From assembly GCF_014472415.1 (NCBI RefSeq), contig NZ_JACSZV010000009.1, positions 62,001-126,000 on the forward strand: a DNA stretch of 64,000 nt, in the 5' to 3' direction. The DNA is from Pseudomonas sp. N40(2020). Its GTDB lineage: Bacteria; Pseudomonadota; Gammaproteobacteria; Pseudomonadales; Pseudomonadaceae. Under the pieces are notes generated by a model. The model saw only the letters and a list, made by a program, of their open reading frames with translations, had not been told where the DNA came from and ran no database searches. The position numbers and the translations under genes were made by a program. Below, in pieces: positions 7,843 to 41,500 of this stretch (its first letter is position 1; each line of letters starts with the position of its first letter).

Positions 7843-7870
7843 TCCAGAATCCGCAGTGAGGCTTATGACC

Positions 7871-7940
7871 CTATCGCGAGCAGGCTCACTCCTACATTTG
7901 GAATGCGTTCCCCCTGTAGGAGTGAGCCTGCTCGCGATGG
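7871..7940. repeat. REP doublet (REPIN-like inverted repeat)
   Basis: CTATCGCGAGCAGGCTCACT starts the left arm at 7871; the inverted copy ends at 7940, separated by 18 bases. It lies between two convergent genes and shares its core with elements near 19558 and 33343. It could also help end transcription from either side. Confidence 0.8.
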
Positions 7941-7968
7941 CGTCGGCAAGGCCGACATCAAACTCGGA

Positions 7969-19557: not shown

Positions 19558-19648
19558 TGTAGGAGTGAGCCTGCTCGCGATAGCGGTCTGTCAGTCACCT
19601 GCAATATTGATCATGATGGCGCTATCGCGAGCAGGCTCACTCCTACAA
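19558..19648. repeat. REP doublet (REPIN-like inverted repeat)
   Basis: TGTAGGAGTGAGCCTGCTCG at the left and its inverted copy at the right enclose about 36 bases. It matches the elements at 7871 and 33343 and lies between convergent genes. Confidence 0.8.
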
Positions 19649-28799: not shown

Positions 28800-29396
28800 A
28801 TGGCTTTCGAATTGCCGCCGCTGCCTTACGCACACGATGCCCTGCAGCCGCACATTTCCAAGGAAACCCTGGAATTTCACCACGACAAGCACCACAACAC
28901 CTATGTCGTGAACCTGAACAACCTGGTGCCAGGCACCGAGTTCGAAGGCAAAACCCTGGAAGAAATCGTCAAGACTTCCTCGGGCGGCATCTTCAACAAC
29001 GCCGCTCAGGTCTGGAACCACACTTTCTACTGGAACTGCCTGGCACCAAACGCCGGCGGTCAACCAACCGGCGCGCTGGCTGAAGCCATCAACGCTGCGT
29101 TCGGTTCGTTCGACAAGTTCAAGGAAGAGTTCAGCAAAACCTCGATCGGTACCTTCGGTTCCGGCTGGGGCTGGCTGGTGAAAAAGGCTGACGGTTCCCT
29201 GGCTCTGGCCAGCACCATCGGCGCCGGCAACCCGCTGACCAGCGGCGACACCCCGCTGCTGACCTGCGACGTCTGGGAACACGCTTACTACATCGACTAC
29301 CGCAACGTTCGTCCTAAGTATGTCGAAGCGTTCTGGAACCTGGTCAACTGGAAGTTCGTTGCTGAGCAGTTCGAAGGCAAAGCCTTCACCGCTTAA
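28800..29396 (+). CDS. sodB: Iron superoxide dismutase
   Basis: The 198-aa protein matches SodB over its full length. Metal ligands are visible: H27 in [11 protein letters not shown], the His of WNHTFYWN, and Asp and His of [11 protein letters not shown]. The Gln in AAQVWNH marks the iron-dependent class. It removes superoxide in the cytosol. TTAGGAGAATCATC supplies a strong ribosome-binding site. The neighbouring bifA and imelysin genes match the order in P. aeruginosa. A terminator follows 15 bases after the stop. Confidence 0.97.
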
Positions 29397-29410
29397 GCTG
29401 CGCGCCAGAC

Positions 29411-29437
29411 AAAAAACCCGGCTTTTGCCGGGTTTTT
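29411..29437 (+). terminator. Terminator of sodB
   Basis: ACCCGGC-TTTT-GCCGGGT preceded by an A-run and followed by TTTTC. Confidence 0.85.
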
Positions 29438-29738
29438 CATGCCTGTGATTTATGTCCACAGGGAGAGCATTTCTCTCACGAGGAAAGCTGGCTTTGACTG
29501 CTTGTCGCCGAGCCACAGCGGGCTAACATCAAACAGAGGAAAATTTCTTGCGCACCGCTCAAGTTGGGGGCCGAAACTACCGACATAGTACAAATAGGAC
29601 TAATACTCCAGACAGCAGCATTTCGGCCAAGACCACAGGCGAATGACTTGAGGCCTGATTGTCCCTTTGACTGCAAACACGGGATTGCCAATACTCATGG
29701 CAAACTGACGCTACCCGCACGGAACAAGGAATAACCCT
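29438..29738. other. Upstream region of bifA
   Basis: These 301 bases separate the sodB terminator from the bifA start. They should hold the bifA promoter, but I cannot pick a convincing -10/-35 pair. A 71-codon antisense frame here has no family resemblance and I do not call it. Confidence 0.4.
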
Positions 29739-31790
29739 TTGAAGCTGGAACTCAAGAACAGCTTGTCGGTGAAGTTGCTCCGGGTCGTGCTCCTGTCAGC
29801 ATTGATCGTCGGCGTGGTCTTGAGCTGCGCGCAGATCGTTTTCGACGCCTATAAAACCCGTCAGGCCGTGGCGGGCGACGCCGAGCGCATCCTCGACATG
29901 TTCCGTGATCCCTCCACTCAGGCCGTCTATAGCCTGGATCGGGAGATGGGCATGCAGGTGATCGAAGGCCTGTTTCAGGACGATGCCGTGCGCCAGGCCT
30001 CCATTGGCCACCCCAACGAAGCGATGCTGGCGCAGAAGTCCCGTGAGTTGCAGCATTCCAACAGTCGCTGGCTGACCGACCTGATTCTTGGGCAAGAACG
30101 CACCTTCACCACCCAACTGGTGGGACGTGGACCGTACAGCGAGTACTACGGCGACTTGAGCATCACCCTCGACACCGCCACTTATGGCGAGGGTTTTATC
30201 GTCAGCTCGGTGATCATCTTCATTTCCGGTGTGCTGCGGGCGCTGGCCATGGGTCTGGTGCTGTATCTGGTTTATCACTGGCTGTTGACCAAACCGCTGT
30301 CGCGGATCATCGAGCATCTGACCGAAATCAATCCGGATCGCCCCAGCGAACACAAGATTCCGCAACTCAAGGGCCACGAAAAGAACGAACTCGGCCTCTG
30401 GATCAACACCGCCAACCAGTTGCTCGAATCCATCGAACGCAATACCCACCTGCGCCACGAAGCGGAAAACAGCCTGCTGCGCATGGCCCAGTACGATTTC
30501 CTCACCGGCCTGCCGAACCGTCAGCAATTGCAGCAGCAACTGGACAAGATTCTGGTCGACGCCGGCAAGTTGCAGCGTCGGGTCGCAGTGTTGTGTGTAG
30601 GGCTGGATGATTTCAAAGGTATCAACGAGCAGTTCAGCTACCAGACCGGCGACCAATTATTGCTGGCCCTGGCTGATCGCCTGCGCGCCCACAGCGGCCG
30701 CCTAGGCGCCCTCGCCCGTTTGGGCGGCGACCAGTTCGCCCTGGTGCAGGCCGATATCGAACAGCCTTACGAAGCTGCCGAACTGGCGCAAAGCATTCTC
30801 GATGACCTGGAAGCGGCGTTTGCCCTCGATCATCAGGAGATCCGCCTGCGCGCGACCATCGGCATCACCCTGTTCCCGGAGGACGGCGACAGCACTGAAA
30901 AGCTGTTGCAGAAAGCCGAGCAGACCATGACCCTGGCCAAAACCCGCTCGCGTAACCGATATCAGTTCTACATCGCCAGCGTCGACAGTGAGATGCGCCG
31001 CCGTCGTGAGCTTGAAAAAGACCTGCGTGACGCACTGATTCGCGATCAGTTCTACCTCGTCTATCAACCGCAGATCAGCTACCGCGATCACCGCGTGGTC
31101 GGGGTCGAGGCGCTGATTCGCTGGCAGCATCCGGAGCACGGTCTGGTGCCGCCGGACTTGTTCATTCCGCTGGCCGAGCAAAACGGCACGATCATTGCCA
31201 TCGGCGAATGGGTGCTCGATCAGGCCTGCAAGCAGTTGCGCGAATGGCACGATCAGGGCTTCGCCGATCTGCGCATGGCGGTCAACCTGTCCACCGTGCA
31301 ACTGCACCACGCCGAGTTGCCGCGGGTGGTCAACAACCTGTTGCAGATGTACCGTCTGCCACCGCGCAGCCTGGAACTGGAAGTCACCGAAACCGGCCTG
31401 ATGGAAGACATCAGCACCGCCGCCCAGCACCTGCTGAGCCTGCGTCGCTCCGGCGCGTTGATCGCCATCGACGACTTTGGCACCGGGTATTCGTCACTGA
31501 GCTATCTGAAAAGTCTGCCGCTGGACAAGATCAAGATCGACAAGAGCTTCGTCCAGGATCTGCTGGATGACGACGATGACGCGACCATCGTTCGCGCGAT
31601 CATTCAACTGGGCAAGAGTCTCGGCATGCAGGTGATTGCCGAGGGCGTGGAAACCGCCGAGCAAGAGTCCTACATCATCTCCGAAGGCTGCCACGAAGGT
31701 CAGGGTTACCACTACAGCAAGCCGCTGCCGGCGCGGGAGCTCAGTGCCTACCTCAAGCAGGCGCAGCGCAGTAACGCGGCGATTCTTTGA
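29739..31790 (+). CDS. bifA: c-di-GMP phosphodiesterase BifA (degenerate GGDEF, EAL)
   Basis: Translation starts at TTG 29739; AAGGA lies 8 bases upstream and there is no nearby ATG in frame. The 683-aa inner-membrane protein has a helix at about 10-30, a periplasmic region, a second helix near 160-185 and then GGDEF and EAL domains. The GGDEF signature reads GGDQF (329-333), so diguanylate cyclase activity should be absent. The EAL domain looks intact: EAL at 457-459, TETGLMED, DDFGTGYSS, KIDKSF and EGVET. Next to sodB this matches BifA, which lowers c-di-GMP to promote motility and limit biofilm. Confidence 0.92.
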   Translation: MKLELKNSLSVKLLRVVLLSALIVGVVLSCAQIVFDAYKTRQAVAGDAERILDMFRDPSTQAVYSLDREMGMQVIEGLFQDDAVRQASIGHPNEAMLAQKSRELQHSNSRWLTDLILGQERTFTTQLVGRGPYSEYYGDLSITLDTATYGEGFIVSSVIIFISGVLRALAMGLVLYLVYHWLLTKPLSRIIEHLTEINPDRPSEHKIPQLKGHEKNELGLWINTANQLLESIERNTHLRHEAENSLLRMAQYDFLTGLPNRQQLQQQLDKILVDAGKLQRRVAVLCVGLDDFKGINEQFSYQTGDQLLLALADRLRAHSGRLGALARLGGDQFALVQADIEQPYEAAELAQSILDDLEAAFALDHQEIRLRATIGITLFPEDGDSTEKLLQKAEQTMTLAKTRSRNRYQFYIASVDSEMRRRRELEKDLRDALIRDQFYLVYQPQISYRDHRVVGVEALIRWQHPEHGLVPPDLFIPLAEQNGTIIAIGEWVLDQACKQLREWHDQGFADLRMAVNLSTVQLHHAELPRVVNNLLQMYRLPPRSLELEVTETGLMEDISTAAQHLLSLRRSGALIAIDDFGTGYSSLSYLKSLPLDKIKIDKSFVQDLLDDDDDATIVRAIIQLGKSLGMQVIAEGVETAEQESYIISEGCHEGQGYHYSKPLPARELSAYLKQAQRSNAAIL

Positions 31791-31844
31791 TACAGCGCAT
31801 AAGCGTTGGCTAAATAAGAAATATTTCCAAGCACAACCCTTTAC

Positions 31845-31871
31845 ACATAATGCGAAAGATTTGCATTATGT
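31845..31871. promoter_or_regulatory. Fur-box-like palindrome upstream of the imelysin operon
   Basis: ACATAATGC-N9-GCATTATGT is a perfect 9-bp inverted repeat, and its core TGCGAAAGATTTGCA resembles Pseudomonas Fur boxes (10 of 14 positions of the 7-1-7 model). It lies about 57 bases before the icmP start, next to a candidate promoter region (TAAATAAGAAATATT). Iron-repressed control of imelysin genes is known, so Fur is the likely binder. Confidence 0.6.
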
Positions 31872-31927
31872 CGCAGTTTTGCGCCCCCAGCGCGAGTCCA
31901 CTCAACTACCGAAGCAGGATGTTCGCC

Positions 31928-33274
31928 ATGATTCGTATGCCTCTGGCTACCGCCAGTCTGCTGGCCATCGCTATTTCCCTCGCCGGTTGCGGCGAAGGCA
32001 AAGACAAGGCTGCCGCCCCGGCCACGCCGACTCCAGCCGCCACCGCCGCCGCTCCAGCAGCCGCGCCTGCCGCTGCCGGTAAAGTCGACGAAGCCGCTGC
32101 CAAGGCAGTGGTCGCGCACTACGCCGACATGGTCTTCGCCGTTTACAGCGATGCCGAATCCACCGCGAAAACCCTGCAAACCGCCGTTGACGCTTTCCTC
32201 GCCAAGCCGAACGCCGACACCCTGAAAGCCGCCAAGGCTGCGTGGGTTGCTGCTCGCGTTCCTTACCTGCAGAGCGAAGTGTTCCGCTTCGGCAACACCA
32301 TCATCGATGACTGGGAAGGTCAGGTTAACGCCTGGCCACTGGACGAGGGTCTGATCGACTACGTCGACAAATCCTACGAGCACGCACTGGGTAACCCGGG
32401 CGCCACCGCCAATATCATCGCCAACACTGAAGTACAGGTCGGCGAAGACAAGGTCGATGTCAAAGACATCACCCCGGAAAAACTCGCCAGCCTGAACGAG
32501 CTGGGCGGTTCCGAGGCCAACGTTGCCACCGGCTACCACGCGATCGAATTCCTGCTCTGGGGCCAGGACTTGAACGGCACCGGCCCTGGCGCTGGCAACC
32601 GTCCTGCTTCGGACTACCTGGAAGGCGCCGGCGCCACTGGCGGCCACAACGATCGTCGTCGTGCCTACCTGAAGTCCGTGACCCAACTGCTGGTCAGCGA
32701 CCTGGAAGAAATGGTCGGCAACTGGAAGCCGAACGTGGCTGACAACTACCGCGCCACCCTGGAAGCCGAGCCGGGCGAAACCGGTCTGCGCAAAATGCTC
32801 TTCGGCATGGGCAGTCTGTCCCTGGGCGAACTGGCGGGCGAGCGCATGAAGGTTTCCCTGGAAGCCAATTCCCCGGAAGACGAACAGGATTGCTTCAGCG
32901 ACAACACCCACTACTCGCACTTCTACGATGCCAAAGGCATTCGTAACGTTTACCTGGGCGAGTACACCCGTGTTGACGGCACCAAGATGACCGGCGCCAG
33001 CCTGTCGTCGCTGGTGGCCAAGGCCGACCCGGCTGCCGACACCGCGCTGAAAGCTGATCTGGCCGCTACCGAAGCCAAGATCCAGGTCATGGTTGATCAC
33101 GCCAAGAAAGGTGAGCACTACGACCAACTGATCGCGGCCGGCAACACCGCTGGCAACCAGGTCGTTCGCGACGCTATCGCATCGCTGGTCAAGCAGACCG
33201 GTTCGATCGAAGCCGCTGCCGGCAAACTGGGCATCAGCGACCTGAACCCGGACAACGCTGATCACGAGTTCTGA
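31928..33274 (+). CDS. icmP: Imelysin-family lipoprotein (IcmP-like)
   Basis: I start at ATG 31928, with AGGA 8 bases upstream. The 448-aa protein has a lipoprotein signal with lipobox LAGC, then an Ala/Pro-rich linker and an imelysin domain. The GxHxxE motif of that family reads GYHAIEFLLWGQDL. Imelysins are iron-linked surface proteins; the P. aeruginosa homologue was described as an insulin-cleaving metalloprotease, although peptidase activity is debated. It sits behind a Fur-box-like site and before a di-heme lipoprotein, a second imelysin and a DUF1513 gene, pointing to envelope iron handling. It has its own terminator. Confidence 0.88.
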   Translation: MIRMPLATASLLAIAISLAGCGEGKDKAAAPATPTPAATAAAPAAAPAAAGKVDEAAAKAVVAHYADMVFAVYSDAESTAKTLQTAVDAFLAKPNADTLKAAKAAWVAARVPYLQSEVFRFGNTIIDDWEGQVNAWPLDEGLIDYVDKSYEHALGNPGATANIIANTEVQVGEDKVDVKDITPEKLASLNELGGSEANVATGYHAIEFLLWGQDLNGTGPGAGNRPASDYLEGAGATGGHNDRRRAYLKSVTQLLVSDLEEMVGNWKPNVADNYRATLEAEPGETGLRKMLFGMGSLSLGELAGERMKVSLEANSPEDEQDCFSDNTHYSHFYDAKGIRNVYLGEYTRVDGTKMTGASLSSLVAKADPAADTALKADLAATEAKIQVMVDHAKKGEHYDQLIAAGNTAGNQVVRDAIASLVKQTGSIEAAAGKLGISDLNPDNADHEF

Positions 33275-33291
33275 TCAACCGCGGCTGACTG

Positions 33292-33319
33292 AAAAAGGCG
33301 ACCTGCGGGTCGCCTTTTT
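33292..33319 (+). terminator. Terminator of icmP
   Basis: AAAAAGGCGACC-TGCG-GGTCGCCTTTTT is a near-perfect hairpin ending in a T-run, 18 bases after the stop. Confidence 0.88.
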
Positions 33320-33342
33320 CATGCCTGCCCTACACGGCCCAT

Positions 33343-33431
33343 TGTAGGAGTGAGCCTGCTCGCGATAGCGGAGTGTCAGTTGAAGAATTAGTGCCTAATA
33401 CACCGCTATCGCGAGCAGGCTCACTCCTACA
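33343..33431. repeat. REP doublet (REPIN-like inverted repeat)
   Basis: TGTAGGAGTGAGCCTGCTCG and its inverted copy enclose about 37 bases between the icmP terminator and the di-heme lipoprotein gene. It is nearly identical in its arms to the elements at 7871 and 19558. Confidence 0.8.
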
Positions 33432-33550
33432 GGGATTTGCATTGGCTTGAAGGTTTGCCTCACATCAAGCAAACGATAATTCCTCTTATTCAAACTCCCT
33501 CGCCCTGTTAGACTTTGCGCCTTTGTTTTCGCACGTTTTCAGGATGTCTG

Positions 33551-34978
33551 ATGCCCTCGTTGCCTCTTCGCTTGTCCGCACTGTTTCTGGCCCTGGGCCT
33601 GAGTGCCTGCGATGACGCCCCGCGCTTTACCCAGGCCGAGCCGGGTGAAGCACGCTCGGGTGGTGCGGCGACCGTGCGCAAGACCGATCAGAACGCGTTC
33701 TCCCTGCCTTCGGCCAACCTGCCGCCGTCACGCCGGGTGGATTTCAGCGTCGGCAACAGCTTCTTCCGCAGCCCTTGGGTAATCGCCCCGTCGACCACCA
33801 CCGCGCGCGACGGCCTCGGCCCGCTGTTCAACACCAACGCCTGCCAGAACTGCCACATCAAAGACGGTCGCGGCCATCCGCCGGAAAACGGCGCGACCAA
33901 CGCGGTATCGATGCTGGTACGCCTGTCGATTCCCGATTCGCCAGAGTTTGCCAGGCTGATCGAGCAGGTCGGTGTGGTACCGGAGCCGGTCTACGGCGGC
34001 CAGTTCCAGGACATGGCGGTGCCCGGCGTCACTCCGGAAGGCAAAGTGCGAGTCGACTACACGCCGGTGCCTGTTCGCTTCAAGGACGGCACCGAAGTCG
34101 AGTTGCGTAAACCGGTGTTGCAGATCACCCAACTTGGCTACGGGCCGATGCACCCGGATACGCGTTTCTCCGCGCGGATCGCGCCGCCGATGATCGGCCT
34201 CGGCCTGCTCGAAGCGATCCCCGAAGACGCAATCCTCGCCAATGCCACCGCGCAGGCCAAAGAGAAAAACGGCATCAACGGTCGGCCAAACCGGGTTTGG
34301 GACGACGAGTTGCAGAAAACCGTGATCGGTCGCTTTGGCTGGAAAGCCGGACAGCCAAACCTCAATCAACAGAATGTTCACGCGTTTTCAGGTGATATGG
34401 GCCTCACGACCAGCCTGAGACCCTTCGATGACTGCACCGACGCGCAAACCGCTTGCAAGCAGGCACCGAATGGCAATGGCCCGGACGGCGAGCCGGAAGT
34501 CAGCGACAACATTCTGCGCCTGGTGCTGTTCTACAGCCGCAACCTCGCTGTTCCTGCGCGCCGTGGCATCAACGATGAACAAGTGCTGGCCGGCAAAAAC
34601 CTGTTTTTCCAGGCTGGGTGCCAGTCCTGCCACACTCCGAAATACACCACCGCCGCCAACGCGGCCGAACCTGAACTGGCCAATCAAGTGATTCGCCCGT
34701 ACAGCGATCTGCTGCTGCATGACATGGGCGACGGTCTGGCCGACAACCGCACGGAATTCCAGGCCTCCGGCCGCGACTGGCGCACGCCGCCGTTGTGGGG
34801 GATCGGCCTGACGCAAGCGGTCAGTGGCCACACCCAATTTTTGCATGACGGTCGCGCGCGCAATCTGCTCGAAGCGGTGCTCTGGCACGGCGGCGAAGCG
34901 AAAGCGGCCCAGCAACAGGTTTTATCGTTCAATGCCGGGCAGCGTGCCGCGCTGCTGGCGTTTCTGAATTCACTTTAA
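33551..34978 (+). CDS. Di-heme c-type cytochrome-like lipoprotein (DUF1111, 'thiol oxidoreductase')
   Basis: The start at ATG 33551 follows AGGAT. The 475-aa product carries a lipoprotein signal with lipobox LSAC. Two c-type heme sites are visible, CQNCH (NACQNCHIKDGRGH) and CQSCH (AGCQSCHTPKY), as in the di-heme peroxidase-related DUF1111 family often annotated as thiol oxidoreductase. It would sit in the envelope and move electrons. It starts a compact set with an imelysin gene (27-base gap) and a DUF1513 gene; the first imelysin is upstream, beyond a terminator and a REP doublet. A role in changing iron oxidation state for imelysin-bound iron is inference. Confidence 0.83.
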   Translation: MPSLPLRLSALFLALGLSACDDAPRFTQAEPGEARSGGAATVRKTDQNAFSLPSANLPPSRRVDFSVGNSFFRSPWVIAPSTTTARDGLGPLFNTNACQNCHIKDGRGHPPENGATNAVSMLVRLSIPDSPEFARLIEQVGVVPEPVYGGQFQDMAVPGVTPEGKVRVDYTPVPVRFKDGTEVELRKPVLQITQLGYGPMHPDTRFSARIAPPMIGLGLLEAIPEDAILANATAQAKEKNGINGRPNRVWDDELQKTVIGRFGWKAGQPNLNQQNVHAFSGDMGLTTSLRPFDDCTDAQTACKQAPNGNGPDGEPEVSDNILRLVLFYSRNLAVPARRGINDEQVLAGKNLFFQAGCQSCHTPKYTTAANAAEPELANQVIRPYSDLLLHDMGDGLADNRTEFQASGRDWRTPPLWGIGLTQAVSGHTQFLHDGRARNLLEAVLWHGGEAKAAQQQVLSFNAGQRAALLAFLNSL

Positions 34979-35004
34979 ACACTTAAAAGAATCGGGAGCC
35001 CGAC

Positions 35005-36069
35005 ATGTTCCGTCCCAAGTTGTTGTTCACCAGCCTTGCCGCGCTCGCCCTCGGCGCTTGCTCGCCGCAGGATCCGCAAGCCGTCACTTCGGCCGCTATC
35101 GCCAAATCGGTGATTCTGCCGACCTACACCCGTTGGGTTGAAGCCGACAAGCAACTGGCCGTCAGCGCCCTCGCCTACTGCCAGGGCAAAGAAACCCTGG
35201 AAACCGCCCGCGCCGACTTCCTGCACGCGCAGAAAGCCTGGGCCGAGTTGCAACCGCTGCTGATCGGCCCACTGGCCGAAGGCAACCGTTCGTGGCAGGT
35301 GCAGTTCTGGCCGGACAAGAAAAACCTCGTCGGCCGTCAGGTCGAGCAACTGGTCGTCGCCCAGCCGCAGATCGATGCTGCCGCACTGGCCAAATCGAGC
35401 GTGGTGGTTCAGGGCCTGTCGGCTTACGAGTACATCCTGTTCGATGCCAAGCCTGACGTTGCCAACGAAGAACAGAAAGCCAAGTACTGCCCGCTGCTGA
35501 TCGCCATCGGCGAACGCCAGAAGCAACTGGCCGAAGAGATTCTGCAAAGCTGGAACAACACCGACGGCATGCTCGCGCAGATGAGCAAGTTCCCGAACCA
35601 GCGTTACGCCGACTCCCACGAAGCGATCGCCGACCTGCTGCGTGTGCAAGTCACCGCACTCGACACCCTGAAGAAAAAACTCGGCACGCCGATGGGCCGC
35701 CAGAGCAAAGGCGTGCCACAGCCGTTCCAGGCCGATGCCTGGCGCAGCCAATCTTCCCTGACCGCACTGGAAGCGAGCCTTGCCGCCGCCAAAACCGTTT
35801 GGGAAGGCGTCGACAACAAAGGCCTGCGTGGCCTGCTGCCGGCCGAGCAAAAGCCGTTGGCTGACAAGATCGACGCTGCTTATGCCGCTTCGCTGAAACT
35901 GTTCGACAGCACCCAGCGTTCGCTAGGCGAAATGCTCGAAGACGACGCCGGTCGCCAGCAATTGAACGACATCTACGACAGCCTCAACGTCGTCCATCGC
36001 CTGCACGAAGGCGAACTGGCAAAGGCGCTGGGCATCCAACTGGGCTTCAACGCCAACGACGGTGACTGA
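35005..36069 (+). CDS. Second imelysin-family lipoprotein
   Basis: The 354-aa protein begins with a lipoprotein signal and lipobox LGAC (ALALGACSPQ). The mature part is all-helical and matches imelysin-domain proteins: TYTRWVEADKQLAVSALAYC near the start and GLSAYEYILFD, which replaces the GxHxxE of the first imelysin by GLSAYE. The altered metal motif suggests a different role or metal site. It follows the di-heme gene by 27 bases and its stop overlaps the possible longer start of the DUF1513 gene, so it is in the middle of an operon. The protein should be periplasmic or outer-membrane anchored. Confidence 0.85.
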   Translation: MFRPKLLFTSLAALALGACSPQDPQAVTSAAIAKSVILPTYTRWVEADKQLAVSALAYCQGKETLETARADFLHAQKAWAELQPLLIGPLAEGNRSWQVQFWPDKKNLVGRQVEQLVVAQPQIDAAALAKSSVVVQGLSAYEYILFDAKPDVANEEQKAKYCPLLIAIGERQKQLAEEILQSWNNTDGMLAQMSKFPNQRYADSHEAIADLLRVQVTALDTLKKKLGTPMGRQSKGVPQPFQADAWRSQSSLTALEASLAAAKTVWEGVDNKGLRGLLPAEQKPLADKIDAAYAASLKLFDSTQRSLGEMLEDDAGRQQLNDIYDSLNVVHRLHEGELAKALGIQLGFNANDGD

Positions 36070-36083
36070 TGAGGGCAAGTGCC

Positions 36084-37184
36084 ATGCTGCGACGCCAGGC
36101 TCTGACTTTAGGTAGTTTGCTGCTGGGAGCAGTGACACTGGGCGGCTGGACGCTGTTCAAGCGCAAGGATCAGAGCCCGTTGTTGCTCTCGGCGCGCGAC
36201 GATACCGACGGCAAACACTACGCCGTCGGCTACCGACTGGACGGCACGCGGGTATTCGCCACCGAAGTCGGCCAGCGTTGCCACGACATCATCAACCACC
36301 CGACGCTGTCGATTGCGCTGTTCGTCGCCCGCCGCCCGGGCACCGAAAGCTATCTGATCGACCTGCGCGACGGCACGTTGCTGCAAACCGTGACGTCGCA
36401 GCCGAACCGGCATTTCTACGGCCACGCCGTGGTGCACAAGGACGGCGAATACCTGTACGCCACCGAAAACGACACCACTGATCCCGGTCGTGGCCTGCTC
36501 GGGGTGTACAAGTTCGAAGGCGAGCGGCTGGTGCACAGCGGCGAAATTTCCACCCACGGCCTCGGCCCGCATCAGGTGTCATGGATGCCGGATGGCGAGA
36601 CGCTGGTAGTGGCCAACGGCGGGATTCGTACCGAGGCGGAAAGCCGCGTCGACATGAACCTCAACGCCATGGAGCCGAGCCTGGTATTGATGCAGCGCGA
36701 CGGCACCCTGCTGAGCAAGGAAACCCTCGCCCAGCAGATGAACAGCGTGCGCCATCTGGGGATTGCCAGCGACGGTACCATCGTCGCCGGTCAGCAGTTC
36801 ATGGGCGCGTCCCACGAGCGTTCGGAGCTGCTGGCGATCAAGCGTCCGGGCCAACCGTTCACGGCGTTCCCGGTGCCGGAGCATCAGTTGCAATCGATGG
36901 GTCACTACACCGCCAGTGTCGCGGTGCACAGCGATTTGCGTCTGGTGGCGTTGACCGCACCGCGCGGCAATCGCTTCTTCATCTGGGATCTGGACACCGG
37001 CGAAGTGCGCCTCGACGCACCGTTGCCCGATTGTGCCGGCGTCGGTGCCGTGCAGGACGGTTTTGTCGTGACCTCGGGTCAAGGGCGCTGCCGTTACTAC
37101 GATTGCCGTCAGGATGAACTGCTGGCCAAACCGCTGGAATTGCCGGCGGGGCTCTGGGACAACCATCTTCATCTGATGGCCTGA
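36084..37184 (+). CDS. DUF1513 protein, predicted exported beta-propeller-like
   Basis: I prefer ATG 36084 (MLRRQALTLGSLLLGA), which has GAGG 9 bases upstream; an ATG at 36069 overlaps the previous stop as TGATG. The 366-aa protein has an N-terminal twin-arginine-like stretch and hydrophobic segment, so it may be Tat-exported. The rest repeats short strands with GD/DG turns (HAVVHKDGEYLYATEND; HQVSWMPDGETLVVANGG), as in the DUF1513 family of seven-blade-like proteins. Function unknown. It closes the di-heme/imelysin operon, pointing to envelope iron metabolism. Confidence 0.78.
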   Translation: MLRRQALTLGSLLLGAVTLGGWTLFKRKDQSPLLLSARDDTDGKHYAVGYRLDGTRVFATEVGQRCHDIINHPTLSIALFVARRPGTESYLIDLRDGTLLQTVTSQPNRHFYGHAVVHKDGEYLYATENDTTDPGRGLLGVYKFEGERLVHSGEISTHGLGPHQVSWMPDGETLVVANGGIRTEAESRVDMNLNAMEPSLVLMQRDGTLLSKETLAQQMNSVRHLGIASDGTIVAGQQFMGASHERSELLAIKRPGQPFTAFPVPEHQLQSMGHYTASVAVHSDLRLVALTAPRGNRFFIWDLDTGEVRLDAPLPDCAGVGAVQDGFVVTSGQGRCRYYDCRQDELLAKPLELPAGLWDNHLHLMA

Positions 37185-37214
37185 CCATCCTGCCTATCTG
37201 GAAAGCGTTACCTG

Positions 37215-37250
37215 AAGGGTGAAGGGGTTTCATGCCCCCTCACCCTTTTT
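37215..37250 (+). terminator. Terminator after the DUF1513 gene
   Basis: AAGGGTGAAGGGG pairs with CCCCCTCACCCTT and ends in TTTTT, about 30 bases after the stop. Confidence 0.75.
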
Positions 37251-37342
37251 ACTCCCCTGTAAAAACTGCCAGTTGGAATCCCCCCAGCACTCGGAGTAAT
37301 GTTCCCGCCTGTCTCGCCTGATTTATCCAAGGAAATGGAAAT

Positions 37343-38491
37343 ATGCTGCGTCGCCGCATGCTGATCATGTTGGGTGTTGTCTTGCTGATCGTCCTGGTGC
37401 TGGGCGGTTATAAAGCCTTTTCGATCTACACCATGATCCAGGGTTTCTCCAAGCCGAAACCGCCGATCAGTGTCGCCGTGGCCAATGCCAGCGAGCAGCC
37501 GTGGCAGATGCGCCTGCCCACCGTCGGCACGCTCAAGGCGCTGCAAGGCGTCGAACTGAGCCTGGAAGTCGCCGGCACCGTTACCGAACTCAAGTTCGAA
37601 TCCGGGCAGAAGGTCAAGGCCGGGCAACCGCTGCTGCAACTCGACAGCGCCGTGGAAACCGCCCTTCTGGAAACCGCCAGGGCTGACCTGGGCCTGGCGC
37701 AACTGGACTTCGGCCGTGGCAGCCAACTGGTCGACAGCCGCGCGATTTCCAAAGGCGAGTACGACCGGCTCTCGGCGGTACTGCAAAAGAACAAGGCCAC
37801 GGTCAACCAGCTCAATGCCTCGCTGGCAAAAAAACGCATCCTCGCCCCCTTCAGCGGCACCATCGGCATCCGTCAGGTCGACGTCGGCGACTACCTCGCC
37901 AGCGGCACCAAAATCGCCACCCTGCAGGATTTGAGCAGCCTCTACGCCGACTTCTATGTGCCCGAGCAATCGGTGCCGAAACTGGCCATCGGCCAACCGG
38001 TGAATATCTCGGCCGGCGCTTACCCCGGGCAAAATTTCCCGGGCAAGATCAGCGCGATCAACCCGATCGTCGAAAGCAGCACCCGCAATATTCTGGTGCG
38101 CGCCACCCTCGCCAACCCCGACAGCAAATTGCTGCCGGGCATGTTCGCCAGCCTCGAAGTGCTGCTGCCCAATCCACAGAAGCACGTCGTGGTACCTGAG
38201 AGTGCGATCACGTACACCCTCTATGGCAATTCGCTGTACGTGGTCGAACAGAAGAAAGCCGAGGACGGCAGCGTCGAGAAAGACGACAAGGGCCAACCGG
38301 TGCTGATCGCCGAACGCCGCTTCATCGAAACCGGTGAGCGCCGCGATGGCCTGGTAATGATCAACAAGGGCGTGCAGAGCGGCGAACAAGTGGTGACGGC
38401 CGGCCAGATCAAACTGGACAACGGCGCCCACATTGCCATCAGCGACGACAAGACCCTCGGCGAGCAGAACAGTCCGCGCCGCGCCGACTGA
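37343..38491 (+). CDS. mexV: RND efflux periplasmic adaptor, MexV-like
   Basis: The 382-aa protein is a membrane fusion protein of an RND pump. It has an N-terminal hydrophobic anchor (residues about 6-26, LIMLGVVLLIVLVLGGYKAF), a lipoyl/biotinyl-like half (EVAGTVTELKFESGQKVKAG, then LAPFSGTIGIRQVDVGDYL), a helical hairpin between them and a beta-barrel domain. The sole pump gene follows 14 bases downstream. Gene order after the imelysin/DUF1513 set matches mexV in P. aeruginosa, where MexVW uses OprM for the outer-membrane channel. No outer-membrane gene is present here either. Confidence 0.85.
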   Translation: MLRRRMLIMLGVVLLIVLVLGGYKAFSIYTMIQGFSKPKPPISVAVANASEQPWQMRLPTVGTLKALQGVELSLEVAGTVTELKFESGQKVKAGQPLLQLDSAVETALLETARADLGLAQLDFGRGSQLVDSRAISKGEYDRLSAVLQKNKATVNQLNASLAKKRILAPFSGTIGIRQVDVGDYLASGTKIATLQDLSSLYADFYVPEQSVPKLAIGQPVNISAGAYPGQNFPGKISAINPIVESSTRNILVRATLANPDSKLLPGMFASLEVLLPNPQKHVVVPESAITYTLYGNSLYVVEQKKAEDGSVEKDDKGQPVLIAERRFIETGERRDGLVMINKGVQSGEQVVTAGQIKLDNGAHIAISDDKTLGEQNSPRRAD

Positions 38492-38504
38492 TCAAGGAAT
38501 CCTC

Positions 38505-41500
38505 ATGGCTTTTACTGATCCGTTCATCCGCCGCCCGGTGCTCGCCACCGTGGTCAGCCTGCTGATTGTGCTGCTGGGCTTCCAGGCCTGGAGCAAGCTG
38601 CCGCTGCGCCAATACCCGCAAATGGAAAACGCCCTGATCACGGTGACCACCGCGTATCCCGGGGCCAACGCCGAAACCATTCAGGGCTATATCACCCAGC
38701 CGATGCAACAGAGCCTGGCCAGCGCCGAGGGCATCGACTACATGACGTCGGTCAGTCGGCAGAACTTCTCGACGATTTCGATCTACGCGCGCATCGGTTC
38801 CAACACCGACCGCTTGTTCACCGAGCTGCTGGCCAAGGCCAACGAGGTGAAGAACAAGCTGCCGCAGGACGCCGAAGATCCGGTGCTGAGCAAAGAGTCT
38901 GCCGACGCCTCGGCGCTGATGTACATCAGCTTCTTCAGCAAGGATCTGAGCAACCCGCAGATTACCGATTACCTGTCACGGGTTATCCAGCCGAAACTGG
39001 CGACCCTGCCGGGCATGGCCGAAGCGGAGATTCTCGGCAATCAGGTGTTTGCCATGCGCCTGTGGCTCGACCCGGTGAAGCTCGCCGGTTTCGGCCTCAG
39101 CGCCAGCGACGTGACCAACGCGGTACGCCAATACAACTTCCTCTCCGCTGCGGGCGAAGTGAAAGGCGAGTACGTGGTCACCAGCATCAACGCCAACACT
39201 GAATTGAAATCCGCTGAAGCGTTCGCGGCGATTCCGCTCAAGGTCAGTGGCGACAGCCGTGTGCTGCTCAGTGATGTGGCGCGGGTCGAAATGGGCGCGG
39301 AAAACTACGACTCGGTCAGCTCGTTCGGTGGCACGCCGTCGGTGTACATCGGCATCAAGTCGTCGCCGGGGGCCAACCCGCTGGATGTGATCAAAGAAGT
39401 GCGCAAGATCATGCCGGAGCTGGAAGCCCAACTGCCGCCCAATCTCAAGAGCGAGATTGCCTACGACGCCACACTGTTCATTCAGGCCTCCATCGACGAA
39501 GTGGTGAAAACCCTCTTCGAAGCGGTACTGATCGTGATCGTGGTGGTGTTCCTGTTCCTCGGCGCACTGCGTTCGGTGGTGATCCCGGTGGTGACCATTC
39601 CACTGTCGATGATCGGCGTGATGTTCTTCATGCAGATGATGGGCTACTCGATCAACCTGCTGACCCTGCTGGCGATGGTGCTCGCCATCGGTCTGGTGGT
39701 CGACGATGCGATTGTTGTGGTGGAAAACATTCACCGACACATCGAGGAAGGCAAGACGCCTTACGACGCAGCGCTTGAGGGCGCCAGGGAAATCGCCATG
39801 CCGGTGGTGTCGATGACCATTACTCTGGCGGCCGTTTACGCACCGATCGGCTTCCTCACCGGGCTGACCGGGGCGCTGTTCAAGGAGTTCGCCCTGACCC
39901 TGGCCGGGGCCGTGGTGATTTCCGGGGTGGTCGCCCTGACCCTGTCGCCGATGATGTGCGCCTTCTTGCTGCGCCACGAAGAAAACCCCAGCGGTCTGGC
40001 GCATCGCCTCGACCGCATCTTTGACAGCCTCAAGCGCCGCTACCAGAGCATGCTCCACGGCACGCTGAACACCCGGCCCGTGGTGCTGGTGTTCGCGGTG
40101 ATCGTGCTGTGCCTGATCCCGGTGTTCCTGAAATTCACCAAATCGGAACTGGCGCCGGACGAAGACCAGGGCATCATTTTCATGATGGCCAAAGCCCCGC
40201 AACCGACCAACCTCGATTACCTGAACACCTACACCGACGAGTTCATCAAGATCTTTAAGGAATTCCCGGAGTACTACTCCTCGTTCCAGATCAATGGCTA
40301 CAACGGCGTTCAGGCCGGGATCGGCGGTTTCCTGCTCAAGCCGTGGAACGAGCGCAGTCGCACCCAGATGGAAATCCTCCCCGAGGTGCAAGGAAAACTG
40401 GAAGGCATCCCCGGTTTGCAGGTCTTCGGCTTCAACCTGCCCTCCCTGCCCGGCACCGGTGAAGGCTTGCCGTTCGAATTCGTGATCAACACCGCCAACG
40501 ACTACGAACTGCTGCTGCAAGTGGCCGACCGGATCAAGAAGCGCGCCATGGAATCGGGAAAATTCGCCTTCGTCGACCTTGATCTAGCCTTCGACAAGCC
40601 GGAGGTGGTGGTCGATATCGACCGCGCCAAAGCTGCGCAGATGGGCGTGTCGATGCAGGATCTGGGCGGCACCCTGGCAACGCTGCTCGGCGAGGCGGAA
40701 ATCAACCGTTTCACCATTGAAGGCCGCAGCTACAAGGTCATCGCCCAGGTCGAACGGCCGTACCGCGACAACCCGGACTGGCTGAACAATTACTACGTGA
40801 AAAACACCCAGGGCGAGCTGCTGCCCCTGTCGACCCTGATCAAGGTCAGTGATCGCGCACGACCGCGTCAGCTCAACCAGTTCCAACAGCTCAATGCGGC
40901 CAAGATCTCCGGATTCCCTTTGGTGAGCATGGGCGAAGCGATCGACACCGTGCTCCAGATCGCCCGGGAAGAAGCGCCGGCCGGTTTTGCCTTCGACTAC
41001 GGCGGCGCGTCGCGCCAGTTCGTGCAGGAAGGCAGTGCGTTGTGGGTGACGTTCGGGTTGGCCTTGGCGATCATTTTCCTGGTGTTGGCGGCGCAGTTCG
41101 AAAGCTTCCGCGATCCACTGGTGATTCTGGTGACGGTACCGCTGTCGATCTGCGGCGCGCTGATTCCGCTGTTCCTTGGCTGGTCGAGCATGAACATCTA
41201 CACCCAGGTCGGGCTGGTGACGCTGATCGGGCTGATCAGCAAACACGGGATCCTGATCGTCGAATTCGCCAATCAGTTGCGCAAGGACAAGGGCCTGACT
41301 GCGCGCGAAGCGGTGGAAGAAGCGGCGGCGATTCGCCTGCGGCCGGTGTTGATGACCACGGCGGCGATGGTCTTCGGCATGGTGCCGCTTATTCTGGCAA
41401 CGGGCGCGGGGGCAGTCAGCCGGTTTGATATTGGTACGGTGATTGCGACGGGGATGTCGATCGGGACGTTGTTTACGTTGTTTGTGTTGCCGTGCATCTA

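What the first reader, a model, noticed from the sequence alone, without database searches (positions are those of the whole stretch)
31845..37184. Under-described envelope iron set: two imelysins, a di-heme lipoprotein and a DUF1513 protein
Four successive exported proteins, three of them lipoproteins, lie downstream of a Fur-box-like palindrome. The first imelysin has GYHAIE, the second has GLSAYE in the same position, so they may bind metal differently. A di-heme protein in the same set suggests redox chemistry on iron. Together this looks like a surface system for taking up or holding iron, with no known mechanism.
Basis: partly seen in the sequence, partly recalled or inferred. Interest (0 to 1): 0.58.

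Follow-up and report, generated by a model that had tools for sequence, protein, structure and literature searches.

The report
Known iron cassette with invariant tail
This is the Pseudomonas copy of an already described, iron-regulated set of four exported proteins of unknown mechanism; one of them ends in the same three amino acids (Asp-Gly-Asp) in nearly every copy examined, which gives a concrete handle on how the set works.

Summary
Two imelysins (PF09375), a di-heme protein (PF06537) and DUF1513 (PF07433) lie at 31919-37184, with a Fur-like palindrome at 31849-31867. The set is the counterpart of P. aeruginosa PA4370-PA4373, described by Xu et al. 2011 (two imelysins, a di-heme protein, Fur control, GxxxxE in the second imelysin), so it is not a new system. 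It is probably not one simple operon: the first imelysin is followed by a strong hairpin, a REP pair and a second conserved promoter-like element.

What I add. (1) In 42 of 42 genomes of a 199-genome phylum sample that hold DUF1513, all four genes are present. (2) The second imelysin, the most divergent of the four, ends exactly in Asp-Gly-Asp in 160 of 161 cassettes, 45 of 45 in a held-out sample, with all 16 synonymous codings used; this tail is disordered in the one relevant crystal. (3) The di-heme protein is predicted to have the CcP/MauG fold. (4) DUF1513 is predicted to be a twin-arginine seven-bladed propeller with five invariant His and one Tyr at blade starts. (5) Seven copies of another family carry an Irr-like box; six of them also carry bacterioferritin.

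Function stays inferred: envelope iron handling with a redox step.

The parts
31849..31867 (+). Fur-box-like palindrome AATGCGAAAGATTTGCATT, inside a sigma-70-like promoter (TTTACA at 31840, CATTAT ending 31869)
   Evidence: conserved upstream of imelysin 1 in relatives
31919..33274 (+). imelysin 1 (ICMP/PA4370 type, Peptidase_M75), lipoprotein by lipobox; GYHAIE at 32531-32548
   Evidence: phmmer E 2e-198 to PDB 7xrx_A, named insulin-cleaving metalloproteinase outer membrane protein
33290..33321 (+). strong terminator-like hairpin just after imelysin 1 (its T run lies in the stem; the consensus scan does not list it)
   Evidence: -26.9 kcal/mol for 33280-33325, z -5.58, 0 of 200 shuffles as good
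33343..33431 (.). REP doublet (inverted pair; name recalled) between imelysin 1 and the di-heme gene
   Evidence: z -13.7; same element at three places in the window
33471..33491 (+). conserved box AAACGATAATTCCTCTTATTC, followed by a -10-like TAGACT at 33509-33514: probable second promoter, possibly Fur-controlled (not listed by the consensus scan)
   Evidence: kept also in loci where imelysin 1 is not upstream
33551..34978 (+). di-heme protein (DHOR, PA4371 type), lipoprotein by lipobox; CXXCH at 33842-33856 and 34619-34633
   Evidence: predicted CcP/MauG fold
35005..36069 (+). imelysin 2 (PA4372/IPPA type), lipoprotein by lipobox; GLSAYE at 35413-35430
36043..36066 (+). invariant C-terminal tail of imelysin 2, GFNANDGD directly before the stop
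   Evidence: disordered in PDB 3pf0
36069..37184 (+). DUF1513 protein (PA4373 type): twin-arginine leader (RR at 36090-36095), predicted seven-bladed beta-propeller with invariant His72, 119, 168, 229, 366 and Tyr280
37214..37248 (+). terminator-like hairpin at the end of the set
   Evidence: z -4.59 for 37205-37255

Best explanation
This is the Pseudomonas copy of the known, iron-regulated imelysin / di-heme / imelysin / DUF1513 cassette (PA4370-PA4373 type). Most likely it handles iron in the envelope in a way that resembles EfeUOB without its permease. Imelysin 1 keeps the His/Glu site of the M75 fold and binds iron. The di-heme CcP/MauG-fold protein changes a redox state, of the iron or of a partner. 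Imelysin 2, which has lost the motif His, acts as an adaptor whose free C-terminal peptide (GF[N/S]xxDGD) docks into a partner. DUF1513, a twin-arginine-exported propeller with a ring of invariant His, is the docking or metal-handling platform. Shown here: gene identities, phyletic and physical coupling, regulation-type sites, conservation of the tail and of the His positions, and predicted folds. Inferred: every step of binding, redox change, docking and transfer, and the export routes.
For: Family membership. Coupling: of 199 genomes in the phylum sample, 42 hold DUF1513 at 200 bits or more and all 42 also hold imelysin 1, DHOR and imelysin 2; DHOR, imelysin 2 and DUF1513 are neighbours in all 42, and imelysin 1 lies in the same cluster in 39 and elsewhere in the genome in 3. 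Iron link: Fur-like sites before imelysin 1 in 49 of 104 loci against 5.3% background; exact TTTAGAANNNTTCTAAA in 9 loci, 7 of them 128-316 bases before imelysin 1 and 2 in the imelysin 1-DHOR gap; bacterioferritin-like genes in 15 cassette loci (one confirmed as bacterioferritin). Published responses of likely orthologues: PMC5435343, PMC5816637, PMC7600106, PMC4324432 (passages read). Metal sites: imelysin 1 has the motif His and Glu in 38 of 38; imelysin 2 has the Glu but no His in 41 of 41. Tail: 160 of 161 end in DGD. Folds: DHOR model pLDDT 92.7, hydrazine synthase gamma Z 16.1 and MauG Z 15.5, tied; DUF1513 model pLDDT 89.5, seven-bladed propellers at Z about 30.
Against: Xu et al. found no stabilisation of PIBO or IPPA by zinc, heme or ferric ion in thermofluor assays, so iron binding by these families is unproved. 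A D-x-D ending also occurs in imelysins of another gene set that has no DHOR or DUF1513 beside it (5 loci), so the tail's partner need not be in this cassette. Two DHOR-associated imelysins lack any such tail (L058, L227). No inner-membrane permease is among the genes scanned, so uptake as such is not supported by the anatomy. More than half of the imelysin 1 upstream regions (55 of 104) show no Fur-like site of 13/19 by this simple score, and DHOR upstream regions are at background (7 of 120).
Confidence: 0.48

Rival explanations
1. Maturation model: the di-heme protein is a MauG-like enzyme that oxidatively modifies a residue of a partner (imelysin 1, imelysin 2 or DUF1513), making a metal site. 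The DGD tail of imelysin 2 is the recognition peptide or part of the substrate.
For: Predicted CcP/MauG fold with MauG/pre-methylamine dehydrogenase complexes and the MauG-like copper-homeostasis protein 6e1c among the matches. A di-heme protein plus a propeller recurs in hydrazine synthase: its gamma chain is the first match of DHOR (tied with MauG and CcPs) and its chain B (beta, by recall) is the fifth row for DUF1513. In L055 a second di-heme protein (CCP_MauG) lies in the same cluster. The MbnH/MbnP and CorB/CorA precedents for copper are recalled, not read.
Against: Propeller matches are generic. No modified residue is known. The distal heme ligands were not assigned. No substrate residue stands out.
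Confidence: 0.25
2. Protection model: the di-heme protein is a peroxidase and the set detoxifies peroxide or holds iron safely at the envelope during iron stress, without uptake.
For: CcP fold; bacterioferritin-like genes in 15 cassette loci.
Against: Iron-limitation-type control fits acquisition better than detoxification; it does not explain two imelysins, the tail or the propeller.
Confidence: 0.12
3. Peptidase model: imelysin 1 is a cell-surface metallopeptidase (ICMP) and the others are accessory.
For: The original characterisation of PA4370 as an insulin-cleaving protease, as retold in PMC3143127.
Against: Xu et al. argue from structures that M75 proteins are not peptidases and suggest contamination.
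Confidence: 0.04

Closest known systems
P. aeruginosa PA4370-PA4373 (ICMP operon) and V. cholerae VC1264-VC1266
   Same: Two imelysins with GxHxxE and GxxxxE, a DUF1111 (now DHOR) di-heme protein, Fur regulation, as described in PMC3143127; same gene types and order here
   Different: Here imelysin 1 is followed by a hairpin, a REP pair and a second conserved promoter-like element; whether PA4370-PA4373 has these was not examined. That PA4373 is a DUF1513 protein is recalled
EfeUOB / EfeUOB-M
   Same: An M75 protein plus a heme protein linked to iron; imelysin 1 keeps the HxxE site
   Different: No EfeU permease and no cupredoxin domain among the genes scanned; the heme protein is a two-c-heme CcP/MauG-fold protein. 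A separate locus in this genome (L003/L004) has two further M75 proteins and, by eye, an EfeB-like protein
MauG / di-heme cytochrome c peroxidases
   Same: Predicted fold, two CXXCH motifs
   Different: Own Pfam family (DHOR), no PF03150 hit, beta-rich middle region, distal ligands unassigned
IPPA (PDB 3pf0)
   Same: Same imelysin family, same kind of end, GFNSTDGD
   Different: Distant (phmmer E 4e-17); crystal without partners, last six residues disordered

Membership tests
PA4370-PA4373-type imelysin cassette | imelysin (GxHxxE), DUF1111/DHOR, imelysin (GxxxxE), DUF1513 in this order | tested here: met
PA4370-PA4373-type imelysin cassette | iron/Fur control | tested here: inconclusive
   Fur-like site present and conserved, imperfect match; no expression data for this strain
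IPPA/PA4372 imelysin family | M75 protein with GxxxxE and loss of the motif His | tested here: met
EfeUOB iron transporter | EfeU/FTR1 permease in the set | tested here: not met
   none among the six genes of 29739-38491 scanned with Pfam
EfeUOB iron transporter | EfeO with cupredoxin domain and DyP-type EfeB | tested here: not met
   Pfam shows M75 only and DHOR
bacterial di-heme CcP/MauG superfamily | two c-type heme motifs in a CcP/MauG fold | tested here: met
   (prediction, Z 15-16)
bacterial di-heme CcP/MauG superfamily | match to Pfam CCP_MauG (PF03150) | tested here: not met
   one search lists DHOR and Cytochrom_C, and Cytochrome_CBB3 below its cut-off
bacterial di-heme CcP/MauG superfamily | peroxidase or protein-oxidising activity | not testable with these tools
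   needs enzyme assays
M75 metallopeptidase | peptidase activity | not testable with these tools
   argued against by PMC3143127
nitrous-oxide-reductase-like metal propeller | seven-bladed propeller carrying a ring of metal-binding His | tested here: inconclusive
   fold matches at Z 28.8 among many propellers; five invariant His and a Tyr at blade starts, geometry not measured

The most novel reading that the evidence does not exclude
The invariant C-terminal Asp-Gly-Asp peptide is the working end of imelysin 2. It is inserted into a partner's site, the heme pocket of the di-heme protein or the His/Arg ring of the DUF1513 propeller, either carrying iron on its carboxylates or offering itself for oxidation. 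This would be a tail-directed hand-over in envelope iron metabolism, of a kind I know no example of.
Probability: 0.27. Interest if true: 0.72.

Novelty: new member of a known kind. Interest (0 to 1): 0.42.

Why it matters
The cassette occurs in about a fifth of the genomes of its phylum that were sampled (42 of 199) and has been tied to iron in print at least since 2011, but no step of its work is known. A three-residue tail conserved at the protein level and a set of invariant His in an uncharacterised propeller turn 'function unknown' into simple truncation, binding and point-mutant experiments. If the di-heme protein acts on a partner, it would extend MauG-type protein oxidation to iron.

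Tried and rejected
Considered and dropped, or left open. (1) The tail as a by-product of overlap with the DUF1513 start codon: rejected, because all 16 synonymous codings of DGD and all three stop codons occur, and the tail persists where the DUF1513 frame begins downstream (L018, L040; L213, about 1.2 kb away) and in L055 and L158, where no DUF1513 lies beside it. (2) The tail as specific to DUF1513 or to DHOR: not settled. DHOR without DUF1513 keeps LDADGD (L055, L158); two DHOR-linked imelysins have no tail (L058, L227); imelysins of another gene set (DUF4856 protein, imelysin, TonB-dependent receptor, fatty acid hydroxylase) end in DND. (3) Natural imelysin-DHOR fusions, which Xu et al. 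mention, did not turn up among the loci read; no dedicated search was made. (4) Single-sequence search of DHOR and DUF1513 against solved structures gave nothing; a DHOR profile gave only short cytochrome c stretches and weak hits to a CcP (E 0.0036) and hydrazine synthase gamma (E 0.13). (5) Rfam: nothing at gathering scores in 29000-39000. (6) PADLOC: nothing. (8) The Efe site IV ligands could not be aligned confidently; only the site III His/Glu is claimed. (9) A small gene beside bacterioferritin in seven loci looks like Bfd by its Cys pattern but has no Pfam or NCBIfam hit. (10) Literature: no paper held contains the word DUF1513 and no held paper pairs imelysin with the word DGD; 'DGD' does not occur in the main text of PMC3143127. 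Other searches. Only openly licensed PMC papers are held. Papers that mention PA4372 or PA4373 and were opened at the passage: PMC9718400 (the PA4373-mexV intergenic region), PMC8959810 (PA4373 in a surface-protein list), PMC12893005 (PA4372 in a vesicle list); PMC10210962, also listed for PA4372, was not opened.

Limits of the counts. One search found matches in 112 of 397 genomes; for set C I read 50 loci of genomes not in the first sample (40 stretches fetched, 10 loci from the call), not all. Those loci were found with a profile that includes the tail, a mild bias. Set B (L073-L152) is the best 80 of 579 hits of a DHOR query, so it leans to close relatives; sets may overlap (L022 and L086 look like the same contig). 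Dropped from the set B count of 75: L142 (score just under the limit; ends in GFNNFDGD) and a second, contig-cut imelysin in L144. One search set aside near-duplicates: 67 of 122 kept, 61 of which end in [GS]F[NS]xxDGD. The random windows include coding DNA. In one search, 4 of the 68 four-gene loci (L078, L082, L093, L094) have imelysin 1 some 3-5.5 kb upstream of DHOR. In one search, 119 DHOR upstream regions were scored and 60 printed; a Vibrio locus (L121) also reached 15 of 19, probably by chance, and several Pseudomonas-type loci (L023, L025, L031, L107, L108, L110) fall to 12-14.
Full report
What is there. Between 31919 and 37184 four exported proteins are encoded on the plus strand: an imelysin of the ICMP type, a di-heme DHOR protein, a second imelysin and a DUF1513 protein. 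GYHAIE in the first imelysin and GLSAYE in the second stand at the same aligned place. The first three have lipoboxes by eye; DUF1513 has an invariant twin arginine instead. A regular-expression tally over the sample finds lipobox-like starts in 55 of 107, 61 of 121 and 72 of 115 of the first three proteins, and twin-arginine motifs in 108 of 116 DUF1513 proteins. So lipid anchoring is not a constant of the set, while the twin arginine nearly is. No signal-peptide program was run.

It is a known set. Xu et al. 2011 (PMC3143127; abstract, sections 9 and 10 and passages read) describe the Fur-regulated operon PA4370-PA4373 of P. aeruginosa with two imelysins and a DUF1111 di-heme protein, define the IPPA/PA4372 family by GxxxxE, and call the biochemical functions poorly understood. 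Imelysin 1 here matches PDB 7xrx, named insulin-cleaving metalloproteinase outer membrane protein; imelysin 2 matches IPPA, 3pf0.

Transcription. The consensus scan of 31700-37400 finds two sigma-70-like promoters (0.8 expected by chance); both touch the palindrome at 31849-31867. After imelysin 1 comes a hairpin with a T-rich arm (33290-33321, z -5.58) and a REP doublet (33343-33431) that recurs at two other places in the window. Upstream of the di-heme gene, a 21-base element AAACGATAATNNCTCTTATTC (19 specified bases) is found unchanged in 23 other loci and with at most four differences in 20 further Pseudomonas-type loci, among 119 DHOR upstream regions; it is kept in loci where imelysin 1 is not upstream, such as L084-L088. 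Neither this element nor the hairpin is listed by the scan. The element resembles the imelysin 1 site and may be a second Fur site, but by the simple Fur score DHOR upstream regions are at background (7 of 120). I read this as two transcription units in this strain; it is not proved. Imelysin 2 and DUF1513 overlap by one base.

Iron link. Upstream of imelysin 1, 49 of 104 regions reach 13 of 19 to a recalled Fur consensus, against 5.3% of 1,040 random windows; regions before DHOR, imelysin 2 and DUF1513 reach it in 7 of 120, 3 of 112 and 3 of 116. An exact TTTAGAANNNTTCTAAA, which I recall as the Irr box of alphaproteobacteria, occurs in 9 of the loci held: in 7 it lies 128-316 bases before imelysin 1, in 2 (L016, L056) in the gap before DHOR. 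The 7 are loci of one genus (g75 of family f42 in the listing; taxa of these genomes are not given). They also hold a Bfd-like small gene between imelysin 1 and DHOR, and 6 of them a bacterioferritin-like gene there; one was confirmed as bacterioferritin by Pfam and NCBIfam. Counting all loci, a bacterioferritin-like gene lies in 15 cassette loci. In print: an imelysin-like gene of P. fluorescens is listed among induced iron-uptake genes under EGCG (PMC5435343); VC1264 and VC1266 are placed in the iron regulon of V. cholerae (PMC5816637); VC1264 and VC1266-7 are among the genes changed in an iurV deletion, most of which are known to rise in low iron (PMC7600106); the VC1264 and VC1265 counterparts of A. 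salmonicida appear among shared transcripts of iron-limitation studies (PMC4324432). Of these papers I read only the matching passages, and I did not test orthology.

Coupling. In 199 genomes of the phylum sample, 42 hold DUF1513 at 200 bits or more. All 42 hold DHOR and imelysin 2 next to it, and all 42 hold imelysin 1, in the cluster in 39 and elsewhere in 3. Among the 80 best named relatives, 68 show the four genes in order (in 4 of them with imelysin 1 some 3-5.5 kb upstream), 8 show the last three, and 4 are cut, isolated or rearranged. So the last three genes are the fixed unit and the first is a loyal but movable partner.

The tail. Imelysin 2 is the most divergent of the four (mean column identity 31%, against 35% for DUF1513, 39% for DHOR and 45% for imelysin 1, on alignments of 30-40 sequences). 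Yet it ends in GF[N/S]xxDGD directly before the stop. By one rule (DUF1513 within 600 bases), 40 of 41, 75 of 75 and, in genomes not used before, 45 of 45 end exactly in DGD; 39, 75 and 43 have the whole GF[N/S]xxDGD. The exception, L066, has two more residues after DGD. All 16 synonymous codings and all three stop codons are used, so selection is on the protein. Xu et al. report that residues 384-389 of 389 of IPPA were disordered; by the alignment these are NSTDGD. A segment that is among the best conserved of a protein and disordered when the protein is alone is best explained by a partner. Ten imelysin-2-like proteins of the three sets have no DUF1513 within 600 bases: five end in DND, three end otherwise (L058, L227, L203), one is frame-shifted (L056), and one (L213) is a normal cassette with DUF1513 about 1.2 kb away and ends in DGD. 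Outside that count (L055 scores under its limit, L158 was not in the sets), two imelysins with DHOR but no DUF1513 beside them end in LDADGD.

The metal sites. The HxxE His of EfeM (PMC9174327, passages) is His in 38 of 38 imelysin 1 and in 0 of 41 imelysin 2; the Glu is kept in all of both.

The other two. DHOR is predicted with pLDDT 92.7 and matches hydrazine synthase gamma (Z 16.1), MauG complexes (15.5) and CcPs (15.4), which are ties, with a MauG-like copper-homeostasis protein at 14.7. DUF1513 is predicted with pLDDT 89.5 as a seven-bladed propeller; the listed matches lie at Z 27-30, among them 6-phosphogluconolactonase, hydrazine synthase chain B and nitrous oxide reductase, so the match names a fold, not a function. 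His72, His119, His168, His229, Tyr280 and His366 are invariant in the sample. By sequence they sit at the start of a similar strand in six of seven blades (my reading), which would place them around one mouth of the central channel; I could not measure this.

Mechanism. I favour an envelope iron-handling set that works like EfeUOB without its permease: imelysin 1 binds, the di-heme protein supplies a redox step, imelysin 2 and its tail link the parts, DUF1513 is the platform. The strongest rival is a MauG-like maturation of a partner. Neither is shown. Results that count against a simple story: no metal or heme binding by IPPA or PIBO in print, D-x-D ends in another gene set, and two DHOR-linked imelysins without a tail.

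Verdict. The set is real and already described; its Fur control is likely. The tail, for which I found no report, and the propeller's His positions are what deserve attention.

Noticed in passing
L060:2126-8861, L061:2953-9304, L062:4039-10055, L226:2909-9278, L228:1175-7693: A second, different conserved gene set: DUF4856-like protein, imelysin ending in D-N-D, TonB-dependent receptor, fatty acid hydroxylase, in this order in 5 of 5 loci. Two of the genomes (G007, G299) also hold the main cassette.
   Followed up: partly
L055, L056, L059, L157, L158: A fatty acid hydroxylase gene lies near imelysin 1-DHOR sets that lack DUF1513 (these 5 loci, but not L057), and near none of the DUF1513 cassettes read.
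   Followed up: partly
L055:2528-4571: In a set without DUF1513, imelysin 2 is followed by a fatty acid hydroxylase and a CCP_MauG di-heme peroxidase.
   Followed up: no
window 7868-7943, 19558-19647, 33343-33431: Three inverted REP doublets of one family.
   Followed up: no
L003, L004 (own genome): A separate locus with two further M75 proteins (EfeM/EfeO-like) and, by eye, an EfeB-like twin-arginine protein.
   Followed up: no
L056, L057: Two genomes with a decayed imelysin 2 (frame change, in-frame stop) and no DUF1513 match; perhaps the two are lost together.
   Followed up: partly
window 31919-33274 and loci: Imelysin 1 also has lineage-specific conserved acidic ends: NPDxADHxF in Pseudomonas and relatives, GSDSLDNPxAVF in many others.
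   Followed up: no
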